Source of the DNA: an uncultured Bacteroidota bacterium
GTDB lineage: Bacteria > Bacteroidota > Bacteroidia > Chitinophagales > Chitinophagaceae
DNA length: 53,871 nt
Direction of reading: 5' to 3'
NCBI GenBank assembly: GCA_903906365.1
Contig: CAIVKC010000049.1
Location: 1-53,871, forward strand
The stretch's first letter is position 1. Every line of letters starts with the position of its first letter. Below the pieces are notes generated by a model. The model saw nothing but the letters and a program-made list of their open reading frames with translations, was not told where the DNA came from and ran no database searches. Below are positions 32,659 through 45,003 of the stretch, one piece after another. The translations under genes were made by a program, and so were the position numbers.

Positions 32659-34206
32659 CTATTCCCTGCTTCTTTTTAAAAAGTTTTCCCGAAGAATGTC
32701 CTGAACGGGGACATTGCGGATCTTGCTTTCCAGCCAGGAGATGATATCCAGGTAGGCAAAAGCCCGGGTGGCAAACGGGTTTTTCTCCAGCATTTTGAGT
32801 TTGACCAGTAATTTTTCAAACTCCGGCCTGAGTTTGGAAGGCGGAACCCGGAAGGATTGCCGCAGAAAATGAAATATTTCTTCCTCCACGACCCCCAGGT
32901 TCTCCATTTTGGCCATAAACCGGTACACGGATTTGATCAGGTATTCCAACAGTTGAAAATTGCCCAGTTCATAATGGGCAATCAGGTGAAGGAGCCGGGC
33001 ATAGCACTGCAGGTCGGTTCTCAGGTCCACCTTCCAGTTAATAATCTTGCTGAGGTAGTCGATGGTGCTTTCATAATCCCCGCTGCCAAAATACAGGGAA
33101 GCGATCTTGTAATAAAAAACGAATATCCTGTGCCGGTCAATATACAGGCCATATTCGACCAGTTTCTCCTCAATAAACGGAACCAGCTGAAGCCCTTCGG
33201 TAAAGGTACCCTCCATAAAGTGCCGGTTGATCCTGGAAATATTGAGATAGATAAAGGCCTGGATCCTGTTATTGTCATTTTGAAGCACAATTTTTGAATG
33301 TGCAAAATTTTCGAAGGCATGCAGGGTCTCAATGAATTTCTTATGGTTCTGCAGATCGAAATGGGCTCCCAGCAAATTGTGCAGTCCTTTGATATAATGG
33401 GTTGTCTCTATATCGATCATGAACCGTTCTTTCTCAAAGAGATCCACCCACTTTTGCGCATAGCGATAGTACAGCAGGAAATCCTGCCGGATGAACGCAT
33501 ACCAGCAATAGCTCTGGTAGAGGTAGAGTTTCTCATAGAAACCGCTGATCCGGTCCGATTCTGCAGGTAGGTGGTTATCGAAAAAGGACTGCAGGGCCCT
33601 TTCGTCCTTTTCATTGCGGGCATGCCCGTTTTTGATGTACCAGCTGTAAAGCTGCAGCGACAGGTTCGACAGGCTGCCAATCATCCGGAGGCGGTTATTG
33701 ACTTCATCGAGTTCATTGGCGAGGCGCTCGGCCCTGTCCTGCATACTGCGTGTGATATGGAGTCCTTCGATTTTTTTTTCAAAAAACAGGACCTGCAGCA
33801 GGAAGCTGAACTGGTAGTTGGCTTTGGCATTGTCCTTAATCCGGTCCAGTATCTTCAGGCTCTGCAGGTAGAGCCCCTTATTGTAGAGTATCCGCGCGTA
33901 ATCGAGCTGCTCATGGAGCTGGATATCGATATTATCCTCATTTCGGATAAGCCGCAGACTGGAAAGTATCTGTTTGTATAAATGCGCCTTGGTATTAGAA
34001 AGCTGCTGTTTGGTGATTTTCTTGTTCTTTCGGAGAAGCTGGACTTCGTCGTATTCGTCCATTTTATCCAAAGCATCGAATAACTGTATGATTTTCAAGT
34101 CCTCAGCTGGCGAATTTCGTTTAACATAGAGCTTGAAATTTCGCTTCTCTGATTTTTCCAGTGATTTAATCAGTTGAAACAGTGCGTCTGACGATCGGTT
34201 AGGCAT
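32659..34206 (-). CDS. Helical-repeat protein of unknown function
   Basis: A 515-residue protein without signal peptide or membrane helices. The first 100 residues are Lys/Asp/Glu-rich helices (LFQLIKSLEKSEKRNFKLYVKR, then KNKKITKQQLSNTKAHLYKQILSSLRLI), which could include a winged-helix or HTH-like fold. The rest is a solenoid of helix pairs that resembles degenerate TPR units (for example LQSLKILDRIKDNAKANYQFSFLLQVLFFEKK and YFGSGDYESTIDYLSKIINW). I recall similar conserved proteins in Bacteroidota but no function. It is the first gene of a two-gene unit with the membrane glycosyltransferase. Confidence 0.7.
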   Translation of the reverse strand: MPNRSSDALFQLIKSLEKSEKRNFKLYVKRNSPAEDLKIIQLFDALDKMDEYDEVQLLRKNKKITKQQLSNTKAHLYKQILSSLRLIRNEDNIDIQLHEQLDYARILYNKGLYLQSLKILDRIKDNAKANYQFSFLLQVLFFEKKIEGLHITRSMQDRAERLANELDEVNNRLRMIGSLSNLSLQLYSWYIKNGHARNEKDERALQSFFDNHLPAESDRISGFYEKLYLYQSYCWYAFIRQDFLLYYRYAQKWVDLFEKERFMIDIETTHYIKGLHNLLGAHFDLQNHKKFIETLHAFENFAHSKIVLQNDNNRIQAFIYLNISRINRHFMEGTFTEGLQLVPFIEEKLVEYGLYIDRHRIFVFYYKIASLYFGSGDYESTIDYLSKIINWKVDLRTDLQCYARLLHLIAHYELGNFQLLEYLIKSVYRFMAKMENLGVVEEEIFHFLRQSFRVPPSKLRPEFEKLLVKLKMLEKNPFATRAFAYLDIISWLESKIRNVPVQDILRENFLKRSRE

Positions 34207-34296
34207 CGTAATTTGATAACTTAAAAAGTCTTACCTGCAAAGGGTTTCACCCGATTTGGGTCCCTTTACAGAGTGTAATATATTAACAATTATGAT

Positions 34297-34327
34297 TTTA
34301 GATTCATTCCAATCAAAGGTAATTTCG
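34297..34327 (+). promoter_or_regulatory. Possible promoter of leuA
   Basis: TTTA at 34297-34300 and TAATTTCG at 34320-34327, 19 bases apart, fit TTTG-N19-TAnnTTTG with one mismatch in each element. The leader to leuA would be about 78 bases. The same TTCG ending is seen in the promoter before the ilv leader peptide. Confidence 0.4.
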
Positions 34328-34363
34328 GAAATTCAGGTTGCTTGCCCTTTTTTTGTTTTAATA

Positions 34364-34393
34364 CAAATGTAATCAGCCTGCTTTTTGCTGCAA
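34364..34393 (-). promoter_or_regulatory. Promoter of the helical-repeat/glycosyltransferase unit
   Basis: On the minus strand TACATTTG (34364-34371) is an exact -7 match and TTG (34391-34393) lies 19 bases upstream of it. The leader would be about 150 bases and is antisense to the leuA leader, so the two divergent transcripts overlap. Confidence 0.5.
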
Positions 34394-34410
34394 CTTTAAA
34401 AATCATTTTT

Positions 34411-35583
34411 ATGCCTGATAAAAAAATATTCATTTTTGACACTACCCTTCGGGATGGCGAACAGGTACCAGGCTGCAAATTAAACACCAAAGAAAAGGTT
34501 GAACTGGCCCTTCAACTCGAAGAACTCGGCGTGGATATCATTGAAGCCGGTTTCCCCATTTCCAGCCCGGGGGATTTCAGTTCCGTGGAGGAAATTTCCA
34601 AAATCATCCGAAATGCCACGGTCTGCGGGCTGTCACGCGCCGTAAAAAAGGACATCGAGGTGGCCGGACAGGCACTCAAATACGCCAAAAGACCCCGTAT
34701 TCATACCGGGATCGGCACATCCGACCTGCACATTAAAAGCAAATTCAATGCTACCCGGGAAGAAATACTGCAACGGGCAGTGCAGGCTGTTGGCTGGGCC
34801 CGTCAGTTTACAGACGACGTGGAATTCTATGCAGAGGACGCCGGCCGCACGGACAATGATTATCTGGCAAAGGTCATAGAAGCGGTGATTGCAGCAGGAG
34901 CGACGACTGTCAACATCCCCGATACCACCGGGTATTGCCTTCCTCACCAATACGGGGAAAAAATCGCCTACCTTATTTCCCATGTCCCCAACATTGACAA
35001 GGCCGTTATTTCCTGTCATTGTCACAATGATCTTGGCCTGGCAACCGCCAATTCCATTGCGGGCATCATCAGCGGCGCAAGACAAATCGAGTGCACCATC
35101 AACGGGCTGGGTGAAAGAGCCGGCAACACTTCCCTGGAGGAGGTTGCCATGGTCATTAAGCAGCATAAAAAAGACCTCGGTTTCTATACCAGCATCAAGA
35201 GCCAGATGCTTAACCCCATCAGCAGGATTGTTTCGGAAACCATGCGTATGCCAGTTCAGCCCAACAAAGCCATTGTGGGTTCCAACGCCTTTTCCCATTC
35301 TTCGGGCATTCACCAGGATGGCTTCCTAAAGGATGCCCTCACTTATGAGATCATAAATCCCGAAGAGGTCGGAGCCGACGGTTCCAAAATCGTGCTTACG
35401 GCAAGAAGCGGCAGAAGCGCTCTGGCCCATCGGTTGGCCAAGCTCGGATATGAATATACACGCAACGATATTGATGTGCTCTACCAGCGTTTTCTGGCCG
35501 TGGCAGATACCAAAAAAGAAGTAATGGAAGAGGACCTTCACCAGCTGGCTAAACAATACCAGCCTGAATCCGCTACCGCCTAA
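34411..35583 (+). CDS. leuA: 2-isopropylmalate synthase (short form without regulatory domain)
   Basis: The first committed step of leucine synthesis: condenses acetyl-CoA with 2-oxoisovalerate. It is a DRE-TIM metallolyase, with DTTLRDGEQ (10-18) containing catalytic R14 and metal ligand D15, and [13 protein letters not shown] supplying the metal-binding His pair. [16 protein letters not shown] is the acetyl-CoA/catalytic block, which fits LeuA over citramalate or homocitrate synthase. The length is 390 residues, about 120 short of full LeuA; the C-terminal LeuA dimer domain that binds leucine is absent. The ATG at 34411 is chosen because the protein then begins at the conserved [15 protein letters not shown]; the frame runs open upstream through non-conserved sequence. 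Confidence 0.93.
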
Positions 35584-37638: not shown

Positions 37639-38754
37639 ATGAAAAAGAACATCGTAGTCATTGAAGGAGACGGAATCGGACCGGAAGTTACCAGGCAGTC
37701 CATCAAGGTACTTAATGCCATTGCCGAACAGTATGGTCATGATTTCAATTACAGTTACCACCTCATGGGTGCTGATGCCATAGATAAAACGGGCAGTCCG
37801 CTGCCGGATGAAACCATTGAGGCTGCCCTGAACAGCGATGCCATTTTATTTGGTGCCATCGGACATCCCAAGTATGACAATGATCCCACAGCCAAGGTGA
37901 GACCCGAACAGGGGCTTCTCAAACTAAGAAAATCATTGCAGCTTTTTGCCAATATACGCCCGGTAAGCACCTATGCTTCCCTTCACCATCTTTCGCCGCT
38001 GAAGACCAAAAATATCGAAGACGTTGATTTCGTAATATACCGGGAACTAACCGGGGGGATCTATTTTGGGAAAAAGGAACTCAATGCCGAACAGACCATC
38101 GCCTCCGACGAATGCACCTATACGCGGGAAGAAATTGAACGAATCACCCATCTGGCCTTTAAACAGGCCCTCCAGAGGAGAAAAAAACTAACACTGGTTG
38201 ACAAGGCCAATGTGCTGGAAACCTCAAGGCTTTGGAGAAAAGTAGTTCAGGAGATTGCAGGCCTGTACCCGGAAGTCGCGGTGGACTTTCTTTTTGTGGA
38301 CAATGCTGCCATGCAGATTATCCTCAACCCAAAACAATTTGATGTGGTGTTGACCGAAAACATGTTCGGTGACATCATCTCCGATGAGGCCAGCGTCATC
38401 AGCGGCTCGCTGGGACTGCTGCCCTCCGCCTCCATCGGACACGGATCGGCATTGTTTGAACCCATACATGGTTCTTATCCGCAGGCAGCCGGCAAGGACA
38501 TCGCCAATCCATTGGGCTCGATTTTATCTGCAGCCATGATGCTGGACCATTTCGGACTGCTCAAGGAAGCTGCCATCATCCGGGAGGCTGTAAACTGGAC
38601 CCTGCAAAACGGATTTGTTACAAAAGATATTGATCCGGTCAATTTCTATTTTACCACTACAATCGGCGAGCTGATCAGTGACTATGTGGGCAATAAATTT
38701 CCCGGCGATATCAATAAGGCAAATATCGAGCTGAGGAAATCCACCATTATATGA
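37639..38754 (+). CDS. leuB: 3-isopropylmalate dehydrogenase
   Basis: NAD-dependent oxidative decarboxylation of 3-isopropylmalate to 2-oxoisocaproate, the last leucine-specific step before transamination. GDGIGPEV (10-17) and IRPVSTY are substrate/metal segments. ELTGGIYFG is the LeuB-type decarboxylase loop, and [12 protein letters not shown] with [20 protein letters not shown] is the NAD-binding region that separates LeuB from isocitrate dehydrogenase. The length is 371 residues. It is the last gene before the ilv control region, with no terminator of its own; any read-through transcript runs into the ilv attenuator. Confidence 0.96.
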
Positions 38755-38828: not shown

Positions 38829-38859
38829 TTTGTTTATTGGATGGCTGGACGTATATTCG
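38829..38859 (+). promoter_or_regulatory. Promoter of the ilv leader and ilvE operon
   Basis: TTTG (38829-38832) and TATATTCG (38852-38859) are separated by exactly 19 bases. This is a full -33 match and a -7 match at seven of eight positions to the Bacteroidota consensus. The expected start of transcription is near 38866, about a dozen bases before the leader-peptide ATG, which explains the absence of room for a Shine-Dalgarno site. Confidence 0.65.
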
Positions 38860-38877
38860 CGGTACAACTCTTTGTTC

Positions 38878-38976
38878 ATGGTCAATCGCAGTATACATAA
38901 TATAATCACCTTCGTGCCAGCCCTGCTGGTGGTGGTGGTCATTATTATTCCTGCCATTCCGGGAGGAGGTTGTTAG
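38878..38976 (+). CDS. Leader peptide of the ilv attenuator (32 residues)
   Basis: A short open frame whose translation, not its product, is the likely function. Fifteen of 32 residues are branched-chain amino acids, and residues 16-24 read LLVVVVIII without interruption (codons at 38923-38949), so all three end products of the operon are sensed. Low charged Leu-, Val- or Ile-tRNA would stall the ribosome there. The run ends PAIPGGGC before a TAG stop. Its length and its VVVIIIP core are strikingly like the Escherichia coli ilvGMEDA leader peptide as I remember it, although the flanking sequence differs. The stop codon lies inside the antiterminator fold, as attenuation requires. Confidence 0.85.
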   Translation: MVNRSIHNIITFVPALLVVVVIIIPAIPGGGC

Positions 38977-39017
38977 AGTATACTATAAAGACAAAATATA
39001 CTAAGCGGCCCGCCTCC
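38962..39017 (+). promoter_or_regulatory. Antiterminator structure of the ilv attenuator
   Basis: GGAGGAGG (38962-38969) can pair with CCGCCTCC (39010-39017) at seven of eight positions. Nested inside, AGTATA (38977-38982) pairs with TATACT (38997-39002), six of six. Forming this fold takes away the left arm of the terminator. A ribosome stalled on the Val/Ile codons would leave 38962 onward free, so the antiterminator forms. A ribosome reaching the stop codon at 38974-38976 would cover it. Confidence 0.65.
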
Positions 39018-39040
39018 AAAAAGGCGGGTCGCTTTTTTTT
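39004..39040 (+). terminator. Attenuator terminator in front of ilvE
   Basis: AGCGGCCCGCC (39004-39014) and GGCGGGTCGCT (39023-39033) pair over 11 positions with one G-T wobble, around an eight-base loop TCCAAAAA, followed by a run of eight Ts. It lies 28 bases after the leader stop and 31 bases before the ilvE ATG, so it stops transcription before the operon unless the antiterminator forms. Confidence 0.85.
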
Positions 39041-39071: not shown

Positions 39072-39965
39072 ATGGCATACTATAACGAGCATACAATTCT
39101 ATACCTCAATGGTGAATTTGTAAAGGCTTCCGAAGCTAAAACAGATTTTTACAGTCAGTCACTTCACTATGGATATGCTGTATTTGAAGGTATACGCTCC
39201 TACCGCACAGCTTCCGGGGCAACCAAAATTTTTAAGGCGGAGGCCCATTTTGACAGGCTGAGACGCTCGGCACTGGCACTGAACATGCCCTATACCTACA
39301 GCAGCCTTGCCCTGGAAGAGGCTACCTATGAACTCCTGCGACTCAATAACCTGCAGGACGCCTATATCCGTCCGCTGGTATACGCGCCGGCCAATATGAG
39401 TTTTAACCTGAATAAGGAATCCTTCATCGCAATTGAAGTATGGGAGATGGCTCCGTTCCTGGGCGACAAACTGCTCAGAGTGATGACTTCCGGTTTCCAG
39501 CGGCCCAATCCCCGGGGATTCCGCATCGAAGCAAAGGCCACCGGCCACTATGTGAATTCCATACTGGCCAGCCAGGAAGCCAAGGCCGCAGGATTTGACG
39601 AGGCACTGCTGACCGATATGAATGGCCAGGTAGCGGAGGGTCCGGGGGCCAATGTATTCTTTGAAAAGGATGGCAAGCTCTTTACGCCCCCGGCAGGCAA
39701 TATCCTTCCCGGCATTACACGGGCCACCGTAAAGGAAATTTGTCTGGAACTGGGCATTGAGGTGGAAGAAAAATTATTTAGCGTCGAAGAACTCAAGGGT
39801 GCCGATGCGGCCTTTTTTTGCGGTACCGCCGCAGAGGTGATCGGATGGGACTCCCTTGATGAGAGCGTATTTCCGATCAAATGGAATGAGACAGTCAGCA
39901 GACGCATCCAGCTGGCCTATGGTAACCTGGTCAAAGAAAAGCAGGAGTTGCCACAGTTGGCCTGA
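39072..39965 (+). CDS. ilvE: Branched-chain amino acid aminotransferase
   Basis: A PLP class IV aminotransferase that makes valine, leucine and isoleucine from their 2-oxo acids with glutamate as donor. LHYGYAVFEGIRSYRT (31-46) and the PLP-lysine K155 in EAKATGHYVNS are diagnostic; EGPGANVFF and LPGITRATV are the phosphate-binding parts of class IV enzymes. The length is 297 residues. The ATG at 39072 is the start used by homologues (MAYYNEHTILYLNGEFV); the frame is open upstream but that stretch is the attenuator terminator. It is the first gene after the attenuator and heads the ilv operon. Confidence 0.95.
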   Translation: MAYYNEHTILYLNGEFVKASEAKTDFYSQSLHYGYAVFEGIRSYRTASGATKIFKAEAHFDRLRRSALALNMPYTYSSLALEEATYELLRLNNLQDAYIRPLVYAPANMSFNLNKESFIAIEVWEMAPFLGDKLLRVMTSGFQRPNPRGFRIEAKATGHYVNSILASQEAKAAGFDEALLTDMNGQVAEGPGANVFFEKDGKLFTPPAGNILPGITRATVKEICLELGIEVEEKLFSVEELKGADAAFFCGTAAEVIGWDSLDESVFPIKWNETVSRRIQLAYGNLVKEKQELPQLA

Positions 39966-40045: not shown

Positions 40046-41728
40046 ATGTCGAACGAATTGAACAAATACAGCAGGACATTAACCCAGGACGAAACCCAGC
40101 CTGGCGCCCAGGCCATGCTTTACGCCATTGGCTTTAAGGACGAAGATTTCAAAAAAGCCCAGGTGGGTATTGCCAGCATGGGCTGGGATGGCAACCCCTG
40201 CAACATGCACCTCAATGACCTGGCGAAATCAGTCAAGGAAAGTGTCAATAAAGAGGACCTGGTGGGCCTGATTTTCCACACCATCGGGGTAAGTGACGGC
40301 ATATCCATGGGAACCGACGGCATGCGTTATTCGCTGGTCAGCAGGGACATCATTGCCGACAGCATTGAAACCAATGCGGGGGCCCAGTATTACGACGCCA
40401 TTGTTACCATACCCGGATGTGATAAGAATATGCCGGGATCGATCATGGCAATGGGAAGGCTGAACCGTCCCGGGATCATGTTATATGGGGGTACCATTGC
40501 GCCTGGCCATTATAAGGGGCAGGACCTCAATTTGGTCTCCGCTTTTGAAGCGATGGGTCAAAAAATAGCCGGTCAGATGGATGAAGCCGACTTCCGGGGT
40601 ATTGTCCGAAACAGCTGCCCGGGAGCCGGAGCCTGCGGTGGTATGTATACGGCCAATACCATGGCCAGCGCCATTGAAGCGCTCGGCATGAGTCTCCCCT
40701 ACTCCTCCTCCAACCCGGCACTGAGCACCGATAAACAATTGGAATGCCAGGCCATGGGTGCCGCCATCCGGCTGCTGCTGGAAAAAGACATTAAGCCCAG
40801 GGACATCATGACCCGAAAGGCATTTGAAAATGCGATCACCGTAGTGATGGTTCTGGGCGGATCCACCAACGCAGTACTGCATCTTATCGCGATGGCAAAG
40901 AGCGTGGGCATTCCCCTGACCCAGGATGATTTCCAGGCCATCAGCAACAGGGTACCCGTGCTGGCTGATTTCAAACCCTCCGGAAAATACCTCATGGAGG
41001 ACCTTCATCAATTCGGCGGGGTGCCTGCCGTAATGAAATACCTGCTGAAAAACGGAATGCTTCACGCAGACTGTCTTACGGTCACCGGAAAGACCCTCGC
41101 AGAAAACCTGGCTTCAGCACCTGACCTGGATTTTGACAAACAAAAGATCATCATGCCCCTTGATAAACCCCTGAAGGCAACCGGTCATCTGCAAATACTC
41201 TACGGAAACCTGGCCGAAGGCGGCAGTGTGGCCAAAATAAGCGGTAAGGAAGGGGAGCGTTTTGAAGGAACAGCACGCGTCTTTGACGGGGAGCACGAAC
41301 TCATTCATGGCATCCAGTCCGGCAGGGTGCATGCGGGAGATGTGGTCGTAATCAGAAATATCGGGCCAAAAGGGGCGCCGGGTATGCCCGAAATGCTCAA
41401 GCCCACGGGTGCCATCATCGGTGCGGGTCTGGGAAAAACGGTGGCACTCATCACGGATGCCAGGTTTTCAGGCGGCACCCATGGTTTTGTGGTAGGTCAC
41501 ATCACGCCGGAGGCCTACGATGGCGGACTCATAGCCCTGGTGGAGGATAATGACATCATTGAAATTGATGCCACTAAAAATACCCTCACCCTGAAAGTGG
41601 ATGAGGCCGTGCTGGCGGAAAGAAGAAAGCACTGGAAGCAGCCTCCGCTCAAAGCGACCAACGGGGTACTTTTCAAATACGCCAAACTGGTCAAAACAGC
41701 CGCCGACGGCTGTGTTACCGACGAATGA
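40046..41728 (+). CDS. ilvD: Dihydroxy-acid dehydratase
   Basis: Dehydrates 2,3-dihydroxyisovalerate and 2,3-dihydroxy-3-methylvalerate to the 2-oxo acids. The Fe-S cluster ligands are C52 (NPCN), C125 (PGCDKNMPG) and C197 ([12 protein letters not shown]), the IlvD/Edd family pattern. The C-terminal [28 protein letters not shown] is the other conserved block. The length of 560 residues matches the shorter IlvD type thought to carry a [2Fe-2S] cluster. It follows ilvE by 80 bases in the same direction. Confidence 0.96.
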
Positions 41729-43602: not shown

Positions 43603-44388
43603 ATGAGCACACTGACAGACATAAAATGGAATGCGAAACTCTACGACGACAAACATGCTTTTGTCTTCAAGTACGGGGAAGACCTGGTAGACATGCTGGC
43701 CCCCAGACCCGGAGAGCGCATCCTTGATTTGGGATGCGGCACCGGCTATCTCTCGGACCTGATCGCCCGCAGCGGCGCCCTGGTCACCGGCATAGACAAT
43801 TCGGAGGCCATGATAGCAAAGGCCAAAGAGGCCTACCCCGAAGGTGACTTCCGGGTGATGGCTGCAACGGCCATTGCCTTTGACCAACCCTTTGACGCCG
43901 TTTTTTCCAATGCAGTCCTTCACTGGGTAACTGAAGCCCGAAAGGCAGCCGCTTCCATGGCTGGCTGTTTAAAAACCGGTGGCAGGCTGGTGCTGGAAAT
44001 GGGCGGCAAGGACAATGTAGAAGGGATCGTATCTGCCACCAGGGCCGTACTTTCCAGATATGGATACCACGATCAGGCAGCCAGGGAAGTATGGTATTTT
44101 CCATCCCTTGGCCAATACGCGGAATTACTGGAGAGCCAGGGTTTTCGGATAACCTATGCTTCCCATTATGACAGGGAAACGCCTCTTCAGGATTCCAAGA
44201 ATGGAATTAAGGATTGGCTGGGGATGTTTGGAGAGAACTTTTTCAGGCAAATTCCCCCCCGGGAAGACCTGGAGCCTATACTCGAAGACATTCAAACCCG
44301 GCTTCGGCCTTCCCATTTCCGGGAAGGTTGCTGGTGGGCAGATTATAAACGCCTGCGGATAGTCGCAATTAAACAACCATCTAAATAA
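43603..44388 (+). CDS. Class I SAM-dependent methyltransferase inside the ilv operon
   Basis: A 261-residue cytoplasmic methyltransferase. LDLGCGTGYL (41-50) is motif I, which binds SAM; D65 in TGIDNS is the acidic residue for the ribose. DAVFSNAVLHWV is motif IV and resembles trans-aconitate methyltransferase (Tam) and related small-acid or biotin-pathway methyltransferases. The last 80 residues are a lid domain. It sits between ilvB and ilvN (32 and 27 bases away), so it is very probably co-transcribed with them. A small carboxylic acid substrate made in this pathway, such as isopropylmalate or an aconitate analogue, is a guess only. Confidence 0.85.
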   Translation: MSTLTDIKWNAKLYDDKHAFVFKYGEDLVDMLAPRPGERILDLGCGTGYLSDLIARSGALVTGIDNSEAMIAKAKEAYPEGDFRVMAATAIAFDQPFDAVFSNAVLHWVTEARKAAASMAGCLKTGGRLVLEMGGKDNVEGIVSATRAVLSRYGYHDQAAREVWYFPSLGQYAELLESQGFRITYASHYDRETPLQDSKNGIKDWLGMFGENFFRQIPPREDLEPILEDIQTRLRPSHFREGCWWADYKRLRIVAIKQPSK

Positions 44389-44415: not shown

Positions 44416-45003
44416 ATGAAACAGGAATATACCATCACCGTTTACACCGAAAACCAGATCGGGTTACTCAACCGGATTGCCATTATATTTTCCAGGCGTA
44501 AAATCAATGTGGAAAGCCTCAACACATCCCCCTCGGAAATTGAAGGCATCCACCGCTTTACCATAGTAATCAATGAGGTGGAGGATGTTGTAAAGAAACT
44601 GGCCCGACAAATAGAAAAGCAGGTGGAAGTCCTAAAGGCTTATTACAATACCAATGAGCAGATCATCTGGCAGGAACTGGCCCTTTACAAGGTTCCCACC
44701 GATGTGATAGCTGAAAAGGTGAAGGTGGAAAGACTGCTCAGAGAACATGGCGCAAGGGCGGTGGTTATTCGCAAGGATTATACCGTTTTTGAGGCCACCG
44801 GGCAGCGGGAAGAAACCGACAAACTGGTGGAGGTGCTGGAACCTTACGGACTCATTGAATTTGTGCGCAGTGCAAGGGTGGCCATCATCAAAGACAGCCA
44901 TGGATTTCATGAAAAGATCAAAGAATTTGAGCGGGAAAAACCCGGGGCTGAGGTCATTGAAAATGAATACCTGGACAAGCAGGCCGAGGTATTTTCGATG
45001 TAA
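44416..45003 (+). CDS. ilvN: Acetolactate synthase, small (regulatory) subunit
   Basis: Binds valine and boosts and feedback-controls the IlvB catalytic subunit. The N-terminal ACT domain covers about 3-78 (YTITVYTENQIGLLNRIAIIFSRRKINVESLNTS, where the GLLNR loop binds the effector). The second, ferredoxin-like C-terminal domain covers about 85-180 (ELALYKVPTDV, then AVVIRKDYTVFEATGQREETDKLVEVLEPYGLIEFVRSARVAI). The length of 195 residues is the usual Bacteroidota size, a little longer than the enterobacterial forms. Confidence 0.95.
   Translation: MKQEYTITVYTENQIGLLNRIAIIFSRRKINVESLNTSPSEIEGIHRFTIVINEVEDVVKKLARQIEKQVEVLKAYYNTNEQIIWQELALYKVPTDVIAEKVKVERLLREHGARAVVIRKDYTVFEATGQREETDKLVEVLEPYGLIEFVRSARVAIIKDSHGFHEKIKEFEREKPGAEVIENEYLDKQAEVFSM

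What the first reader, a model, noticed from the sequence alone, without database searches (positions are those of the whole stretch)
38829..39040. Complete ribosome-mediated attenuator with LLVVVVIII leader peptide in front of ilvE
Seen directly: a promoter-like TTTG-N19-TATATTCG; a 32-codon ORF with nine consecutive Leu/Val/Ile codons; a strong terminator with eight Ts; and an alternative stem (38962-38969 with 39010-39017, plus 38977-38982 with 38997-39002) that cannot coexist with it. Known: leader-peptide attenuation controls ilv operons in Gammaproteobacteria, and in silico candidates have been proposed in Bacteroidetes, but it is rarely worked out there. Inference: it switches ilvEDB-methyltransferase-ilvNCA according to charged branched-chain tRNA. 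The geometry is right: a ribosome on the Ile codons leaves the antiterminator arm free, and one at the stop codon covers it.
Basis: partly seen in the sequence, partly recalled or inferred. Interest (0 to 1): 0.88.

Follow-up and report, generated by a model that had tools for sequence, protein, structure and literature searches.

The report
Branched-chain amino acid attenuator in Bacteroidota
Just before a cluster of genes that make isoleucine and valine sits a very short gene followed by an RNA stop signal; together they very probably switch the cluster on when those amino acids run low, as in E. coli but in a bacterial group where this has hardly been worked out.

Summary
A 32-codon ORF (38878-38976, MVNRSIHNIITFVPALLVVVVIIIPAIPGGGC) with nine consecutive Leu/Val/Ile codons ends 95 nt before ilvE; a 13-bp terminator with eight T lies between. 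Its Gly codons (GGAGGAGG) pair with the terminator's 5' arm. A covariance model of 38 relatives matches 181 of 294 family genomes (76 of 101 genera). Of 88 matches examined, the first gene recognised downstream is ilvE in 58 and ilvD in 29. The run-to-arm spacing is 12 nt in 37 of 38 leaders (62 of 88 in a wider, cruder count), about what a ribosome covers ahead of its A-site codon. The distal antiterminator helix covaries across 51 genus representatives (0 of 20,000 permutations as good), and a Bacteroidota-type promoter is conserved. Corrections: only the proximal stem excludes the terminator; at equilibrium the terminator wins, so antitermination must be kinetic; across the family the run is Ile and Val, Leu being rare. 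It is a new member of a known kind (ribosome-mediated attenuation), with no Rfam match at gathering score. Of side interest: two or three such units in series before ilvE in Flavobacteriales-labelled records. No RNA data were available.

The parts
38829..38859 (+). promoter of the leader transcript: -33 TTTG (38829-38832), 19 nt, -7 TATATTCG (38852-38859); start expected near 38866
   Evidence: TANNTTYG within 120 nt upstream of the leader start in 36 of 51 genus representatives (6.3 expected from shuffles), 32 of 51 also with a -33 box matching at least 3 of 4 (2.1 expected); 34 of the 36 begin 22-31 nt before the start codon
38878..38976 (+). leader peptide ORF, 32 codons plus TAG: MVNRSIHNIITFVPALLVVVVIIIPAIPGGGC
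   Evidence: homologous leaders
38923..38949 (+). regulatory codon run Leu2 Val4 Ile3
   Evidence: in 51 genus representatives the ten residues that end at the run's end are 94% I/L/V (I 262, V 195, L 22 of 510), against 18% in the tail and 32% in the head of the peptide (the run was the anchor, so part of this is by construction)
38897..38948 (+). candidate hairpin inside the ORF: N-terminal codons (ATAATA 38897-38902) with the Ile codons (TATTAT 38943-38948); possible pause hairpin
   Evidence: I11; own pairing better than all 5000 permutations among 49 representatives, z -3.9; coding constraint and relatedness not removed
38962..38969 (+). antiterminator arm encoded by the Gly codons (GGAGGAGG), starting 12 nt after the last run codon
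39010..39017 (+). partner of the Gly-codon arm; part of the terminator 5' arm and loop
   Evidence: arm-to-terminator pairing predicted in 50 of 51 representatives when RNA polymerase is just before the terminator 3' arm
38977..39002 (+). distal antiterminator helix AGTATA 38977-38982 / TATACT 38997-39002
   Evidence: 0 of 20,000 permutations among 51 genus representatives as good; one search likewise in 38
39003..39040 (+). intrinsic terminator AAGCGGCCCGCCT-loop-AGGCGGGTCGCTT with T tract 39033-39040
   Evidence: 4 of 11 consensus pairs with changes on both sides in 34 leaders
39072..39965 (+). ilvE, branched-chain transaminase, first controlled gene
   Evidence: TIGR01122 256.6 bits, cut-off 245.55
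40046..41728 (+). ilvD
   Evidence: TIGR00110
41825..43570 (+). ilvB
   Evidence: TIGR00118
43603..44388 (+). methyltransferase-like gene inside the cluster, function unknown
   Evidence: best BioC and trans-aconitate methyltransferase models, all 11 listed models below their cut-offs
44416..45003 (+). ilvN
   Evidence: TIGR00119
45140..46195 (+). ilvC
   Evidence: TIGR00465
46301..47557 (+). ilvA, threonine ammonia-lyase
   Evidence: TIGR02079
37639..38754 (+). leuB, end of the upstream leu cluster; read-through from it would also meet the attenuator
   Evidence: TIGR00169; leuB detected upstream in 79 of 88 family loci

Best explanation
A ribosome-mediated transcription attenuator that senses charged Ile and Val (in this genome also Leu) tRNA and sets expression of ilvEDB-methyltransferase-ilvNCA. 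Transcription starts near 38866 and a ribosome follows the polymerase through the 32-codon leader. If Ile- or Val-tRNA is short, the ribosome waits on the run; it covers about 12 nt ahead, which leaves the Gly-codon arm (38962-38969) just free. That arm, helped by the distal helix, captures the 5' arm of the terminator before its 3' arm is made, and the polymerase reads on. If the amino acids are plentiful, the ribosome reaches the stop codon and covers the arm, the terminator forms and transcription stops near 39040. Shown here: anatomy, conservation, covariation, genomic position. Inferred: start site, coupling, stalling, termination, co-transcription of the genes and the regulatory response.
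For: Run unlikely by chance: 0 of 5000 shuffles. Homologous leaders with I/V-rich runs upstream of ilvE. Run-to-arm spacing 12 nt in 37 of 38 non-redundant leaders (picked by a peptide pattern of which one option limits the spacing to 6-18 nt) and in 62 of 88 loci of the wider set. Model R1 matches 181 of 294 family genomes, 76 of 101 genera, and the own genome once strongly (106.3 bits; next 27.9). R1 knows no genes, yet in 87 of 88 examined loci the first of eleven window proteins recognised downstream is IlvE or IlvD, starting within 150 nt of the match in 79. Distal antiterminator helix: own duplex -3.83 against -2.71 kcal/mol permuted, z -5.5, 0 of 20,000. A Trp among the last three residues goes with ATACC before the terminator core in 13 of 13 leaders, and 0 of the 25 others have it. 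Terminator basal pairs compensate. With a ribosome on the run the arm pairs with the terminator 5' arm in 50 of 51; with a ribosome at the stop the terminator forms in 51 of 51. Conserved promoter.
Against: No transcript or expression data. At equilibrium the terminator wins even with the arm free in 48 of 51 leaders, so the switch must be kinetic; E. coli ilvL gives the same in a like calculation. 113 of 294 family genomes gave no match at E 0.01; whether they lack ilv genes was not tested, and matches weaker than about E 1e-5 were not examined. L041, L051 and L082 carry ilvE without such a leader, and none was seen in Sphingobacterium (L073, L084-L086), Cytophagales L088 or order-level loci L028-L032. 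In 8 of 88 loci ilvD starts 181-634 nt downstream, in one (L145) no window protein was recognised in the fetched stretch. The 1:2-type helix of the window (38890-38896 / 38978-38984) is not conserved (z 0.6). Core pairs GGAGG/CCTCC hardly vary, so covariation says nothing about them. The Trp-ATACC link may be one inherited change. 9 of 88 loci were dropped from the covariation test because the script found no arm or core. Leaders are related, so permutation counts are not probabilities.
Confidence: 0.93

Rival explanations
1. The hairpin is simply the terminator of the leu cluster and the ORF is incidental; ilvE would have its own promoter downstream.
For: leuB lies directly upstream in the window and is detected upstream in 79 of 88 family loci.
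Against: Only 31 nt lie between the T tract and the ilvE start; the conserved promoter lies upstream of the leader. It does not explain the I/V run, the spacing or the covarying antiterminator.
Confidence: 0.03
2. The ORF makes a functional small hydrophobic protein (for example a membrane peptide), not a sensor.
For: Conserved hydrophobic stretch in a small ORF.
Against: The stretch is 94% I/V/L with Ala 19, Phe 1 and no Met, Trp or Gly of 510 residues, while the tail's Gly codons form an RNA arm; it lies upstream of ilvE or ilvD.
Confidence: 0.01
3. The leader is a T-box, riboswitch or protein-bound attenuator rather than one read by the ribosome.
For: Terminator/antiterminator pairs are used by these classes too (recalled).
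Against: No Rfam family reaches its gathering score in the window; the best weak match is Thr_leader (27 bits, gathering score 55), itself a leader-peptide class (recalled); the conserved features are codon-level.
Confidence: 0.03

Closest known systems
E. coli ilvXGMEDA leader (ilvL)
   Same: 32-codon leader with a ...VVVIIIP... run, terminator with eight T, ilv operon downstream; GTG GTG GTG ATT ATT ATC CCA in E. coli against GTG GTG GTC ATT ATT ATT CCT here; model R1 scores ilvL 33.5 bits, E 1e-4 in 115,762 bases
   Different: Different tail, arms and first genes; the peptide similarity is not significant against shuffles (250 of 2000 as good), so homology is not shown and convergence is enough
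ilvB-II / ilvBNC uORF attenuator of Corynebacterium (PMC10272879, abstract and passages seen)
   Same: Upstream ORF rich in branched-chain codons, terminator and antiterminator, ilv operon
   Different: Peptide of usually 15-17 residues before ilvB; another phylum; no Gly-codon arm mentioned in the passages seen
Leader-peptide attenuation proposed upstream of amino-acid operons in Flavobacterium psychrophilum (PMC9723704, one passage seen)
   Same: Same phylum, same proposed mechanism
   Different: The genes are in supplements not seen here; whether ilv is among them is not known to me
Bacteroid-trp motif RF01692 (PMC2864571, table row seen; that it is a trp leader is recalled)
   Same: Candidate cis-regulatory RNA in Bacteroidetes
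   Different: No match in this window at gathering score

Membership tests
Ribosome-mediated (leader-peptide) transcription attenuators | short ORF with a run of codons for the product amino acids of the operon | tested here: met
   translation itself not shown
Ribosome-mediated (leader-peptide) transcription attenuators | intrinsic terminator between leader and first gene | tested here: met
Ribosome-mediated (leader-peptide) transcription attenuators | mutually exclusive antiterminator whose arm is free when the ribosome waits on the run and masked when it is at the stop codon | tested here: met
   (computed, not measured; only as a kinetic switch)
Ribosome-mediated (leader-peptide) transcription attenuators | conserved position upstream of genes for the sensed amino acids | tested here: met
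   ilvE or ilvD first recognised downstream in 87 of 88, within 150 nt in 79
Ribosome-mediated (leader-peptide) transcription attenuators | 1:2 protector or pause hairpin using the antiterminator arm (present in the trp paradigm, not required of every member; recalled) | tested here: not met
   not conserved, z 0.6; a different hairpin inside the ORF is, z -3.9
Ribosome-mediated (leader-peptide) transcription attenuators | read-through rises on starvation for the cognate amino acid | not testable with these tools
   needs experiment
Known Rfam leader families | score above the family's gathering threshold | tested here: not met
   0 matches at gathering scores; best below it Thr_leader 27 of 55 bits
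E. coli ilvL homologue | significant sequence similarity of the leaders | tested here: inconclusive
   250 of 2000 peptide shuffles score as well, yet R1 hits ilvL in register

The most novel reading that the evidence does not exclude
A family-wide, perhaps phylum-wide, BCAA-sensing RNA system of Bacteroidota in which the Gly-Gly-Gly codons of the leader peptide are the antiterminator arm, placed one ribosome lead (12 nt) behind the regulatory codons, with the codon run also folded into a hairpin with the N-terminal codons; in Flavobacteriales-labelled relatives two or three complete attenuators stand in series before ilvE. Such geometry would mean that ribosomes closely trail RNA polymerase in a phylum that largely lacks Shine-Dalgarno initiation (the latter recalled).
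Probability: 0.4. Interest if true: 0.65.

Novelty: new member of a known kind. Interest (0 to 1): 0.45.

Why it matters
It gives a well-supported, testable attenuator family for Bacteroidota with a simple geometric rule. Ribosome-mediated attenuation works only if a ribosome keeps close to the polymerase, so the spacing makes transcription-translation coupling in this phylum directly testable with a reporter. It also offers a covariance model for annotating a small ORF and regulatory RNA in well over a hundred species genomes, and points to stacked attenuators in flavobacterial relatives.

Tried and rejected
Readings as leu terminator, small protein, T-box or riboswitch were considered and rejected (see rivals). 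The 1:2-type helix AGTATAC/GTATACT looked convincing in the window but is not conserved. Homology with E. coli ilvL was considered: striking in the run, not significant as peptide similarity. A leader before leuA was looked for by eye in 34180-34480: no branched-chain run or strong terminator seen; not scanned by program. Of 13 weak R1 matches in the own genome (27.9 bits and below; one of them is the opposite strand of this locus), three were looked at (L092, L094, L095): they look like ordinary terminators at gene ends. Of the 14 genomes outside the family matched in the class sample, five were looked at (L192-L196): L195 (ilvE, ilvD) and L196 (ilvD) precede ilv genes, L192 precedes a hisG-like gene, L193 and L194 look like ordinary terminators. 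The five matches outside the family in the order sample were not looked at. Papers: nine of ten searches used; none of the listings named a Chitinophagaceae ilv leader, but most subscription papers are not held; Lopatovskaya et al. 2010, cited in PMC4833913, is not held and may contain Bacteroidetes candidates.

Full report
What is there. Between leuB (stop at 38754) and ilvE (ATG 39072) lie a promoter-like pair TTTG/TATATTCG (38829-38859), a 32-codon ORF (38878-38976) with CTG CTG GTG GTG GTG GTC ATT ATT ATT at 38923-38949, a GGAGGAGG arm made by the Gly codons (38962-38969), and a terminator (39003-39034) with T tract to 39040. Downstream are ilvE, ilvD, ilvB, a methyltransferase-like gene, ilvN, ilvC, ilvA (ilvE above the TIGR01122 cut-off, the methyltransferase below the cut-off of every model listed). 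The leuA call upstream of leuC rests on the ORF alone and is recalled, not tested. No Rfam family matches at its gathering score. Among dinucleotide shuffles of the gap, 0 of 5000 had a run of nine.

Where the window comes from.

Relatives. ilvE homologues gave 87 further loci (L004-L090) besides L001. A peptide pattern found the leader in 44 of the 88, 38 after removing six duplicates. The pattern accepts a run followed by 2-6 residues and GG or GS, or IIIP, so it favours some spacings. Variant leaders that it missed are in L015/L046 and L025. In the 38, the arm starts exactly 12 nt after the run in 37 and 9 nt in one. CCCGCCT is in all 38 and AGGCGGG in all but L012 and L045, which have one changed base there. 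L041, L051 and L082, close in ilvE, have no such leader; none was seen in L028-L032, in Sphingobacterium (L073, L084-L086) or in L088; L083 begins inside ilvE and says nothing.

Family-wide test. Model R1 covers the last six run codons to the T tract, with only the terminator as structure. In the own genome it has one strong match (106.3 bits, next 27.9). In the family it matches 181 of 294 genomes, 76 of 101 genera, at E <= 0.01 (E-values are per genome, so about three chance matches are expected); in the order sample 42 of 248, 37 of them of the family; in the class sample 19 of 395, 14 of them outside the family and weak, 48 bits or less. From the family list 88 loci were examined (L099-L186, all E about 1e-5 or better; not a random draw). 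The first of eleven window proteins recognised downstream is IlvE in 58, IlvD in 29, none in one; it starts within 150 nt of the match in 79, 181-634 nt away in 8. leuB is detected upstream in 79 (only about 340-440 nt of upstream DNA in the regions fetched). Script-called runs have five or more residues in 84 of 88; of the four others L181 was a wrong frame and three have interrupted runs. The spacing in this set is 12 nt in 62, 9 in 8, 15 in 5, other or not found in 13. Several of the 88 are genomes already in the set of 38, so the two sets overlap.

Covariation. For one representative per genus (51; the script failed on 9 of 88 loci, which were dropped) the 14 nt after the arm and the 16 nt before the terminator core pair better in their own leader than in any of 20,000 permutations (-3.83 against -2.71 kcal/mol, sd 0.20). 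In the set of 38 the same test gave -4.42 against -3.19, none of 5000 permutations as good. Different genera use different pairs, e.g. TGTAT/ATACA, GTATA/TATAC, TTATAT/ATATAA, CATGT/ACATG, and AGTATA/TATACT in the window. Individual leaders vary: in some, e.g. L127, L171 and L176, the own pairing ranks low. In the 38, a Trp among the last three residues goes with ATACC in 13 of 13, and 0 of 25 others have it; these are close relatives, so it may be one event. Four of 11 terminator pairs show changes on both sides in 34 leaders. The whole antiterminator also beats all 5000 permutations in 49 representatives. Relatedness was reduced, not removed.

Codons. In the 51 representatives the ten residues ending at the run's end hold I 262, V 195, L 22, A 19 of 510. 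So the family mainly senses Ile and Val, the products of this operon; 19 of 88 script-called runs contain any Leu. Ile codons in the run are ATT in 88% against 32% in the eleven window genes counted; the reason is open, possibly the hairpin inside the ORF.

Geometry. [quoted passage not shown] Applied to an A-site Ile codon at 38947-38949, cover would end at 38961, right before the arm; with the stop codon in the A site it would end at 38988 and mask 38962-38969 and 38977-38982. Folding agrees: with the RNA free from the 12th nt after the run and the polymerase just before the terminator 3' arm, the arm pairs with the terminator 5' arm in 50 of 51; with a ribosome at the stop the terminator forms in 51 of 51. 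Against a purely thermodynamic switch: with the whole RNA free, the terminator wins in 48 of 51. E. coli ilvL also gives the terminator at equilibrium, so the order of synthesis must decide, as in the classical model.

Promoter and initiation. A TANNTTYG box lies within 120 nt upstream of the leader start in 36 of 51 (6.3 expected), 32 with a -33 box (2.1 expected); 34 of the 36 begin 22-31 nt before the start codon. No Shine-Dalgarno-like sequence precedes the window's leader ATG (by eye), as is usual for Bacteroidota (recalled).

Known or new. The mechanism class is classical. For Bacteroidota it is in print in general terms: PMC9723704 reports strong clues upstream of amino-acid operons in F. 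psychrophilum (passage) and PMC7366714 mentions sORFs reminiscent of leader peptides in B. thetaiotaomicron (passage). The listings of nine searches named no Chitinophagaceae ilv leader, in a library without most subscription journals. I rate it a new member of a known kind.

Side results. (i) In 11 distinct loci labelled Vaginella, Paenimyroides, Chryseobacterium, Kaistella, Amniculibacterium, Weeksella, Flavobacterium or unnamed Bacteroidetes (L066, L067, L069-L072, L074, L075, L077, L080, L081; one search looked at 21 loci) two leader ORFs, each with its own terminator, stand in series before ilvE, three in L067; e.g. MYNSIIISSIIIAGVISHSGEE and MNFYNNTIIISIIISSPP in L070. An antiterminator-like fold was predicted for the last unit in 8 of the 10 loci where a second script's pattern found it (not L069, L077); the first unit was not folded. 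[quoted passage not shown] here both units look Ile-rich. (ii) Other flavobacterial loci (L054-L065) carry one leader such as MNSTIIILVILVIIGFRW. (iii) A genome of the same class has MKFIQLHHHHFHTCSQARS, a terminator and then a hisG-like start (L192; hisG by eye).

Noticed in passing
L066, L067, L069-L072, L074, L075, L077, L080, L081, within 480 nt upstream of ilvE: Two (three in L067) Ile-rich leader ORFs, each followed by its own terminator, in series before ilvE: tandem amino-acid attenuators in 11 of the 21 loci scanned.
   Followed up: partly
L195 (genome G777): Leader MNTRILNIISIIVVVIIISQG, terminator, then a second short ORF MNRFLNIIISIVIISSPPS upstream of ilvE and ilvD: probably another tandem case.
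   Followed up: partly
L192 (genome G781), minus strand 1501-1610: A His leader MKFIQLHHHHFHTCSQARS with terminator before a hisG-like gene (by eye), found by the ilv model (48 bits).
   Followed up: partly
L197 723-821 (E. coli ilvL) against window 38932-38951: E. coli ilvL and the Chitinophagaceae leaders share nearly the same run at DNA level; convergence or deep ancestry is open.
   Followed up: partly
window 43603-44388: A methyltransferase-like gene sits between ilvB and ilvN; no NCBIfam model listed reaches its cut-off.
   Followed up: no
L075, L076, L078, L079: Identical ilvE upstream regions in records labelled Amniculibacterium, Pedobacter sp. Hv1, Chryseobacterium vrystaatense and a Flavobacterium MAG: recent transfer, mislabelling or contamination.
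   Followed up: no
runs of the 51 genus representatives: Ile codons in the run are ATT in 88% against 32% in window genes, where ATC is the commonest.
   Followed up: no
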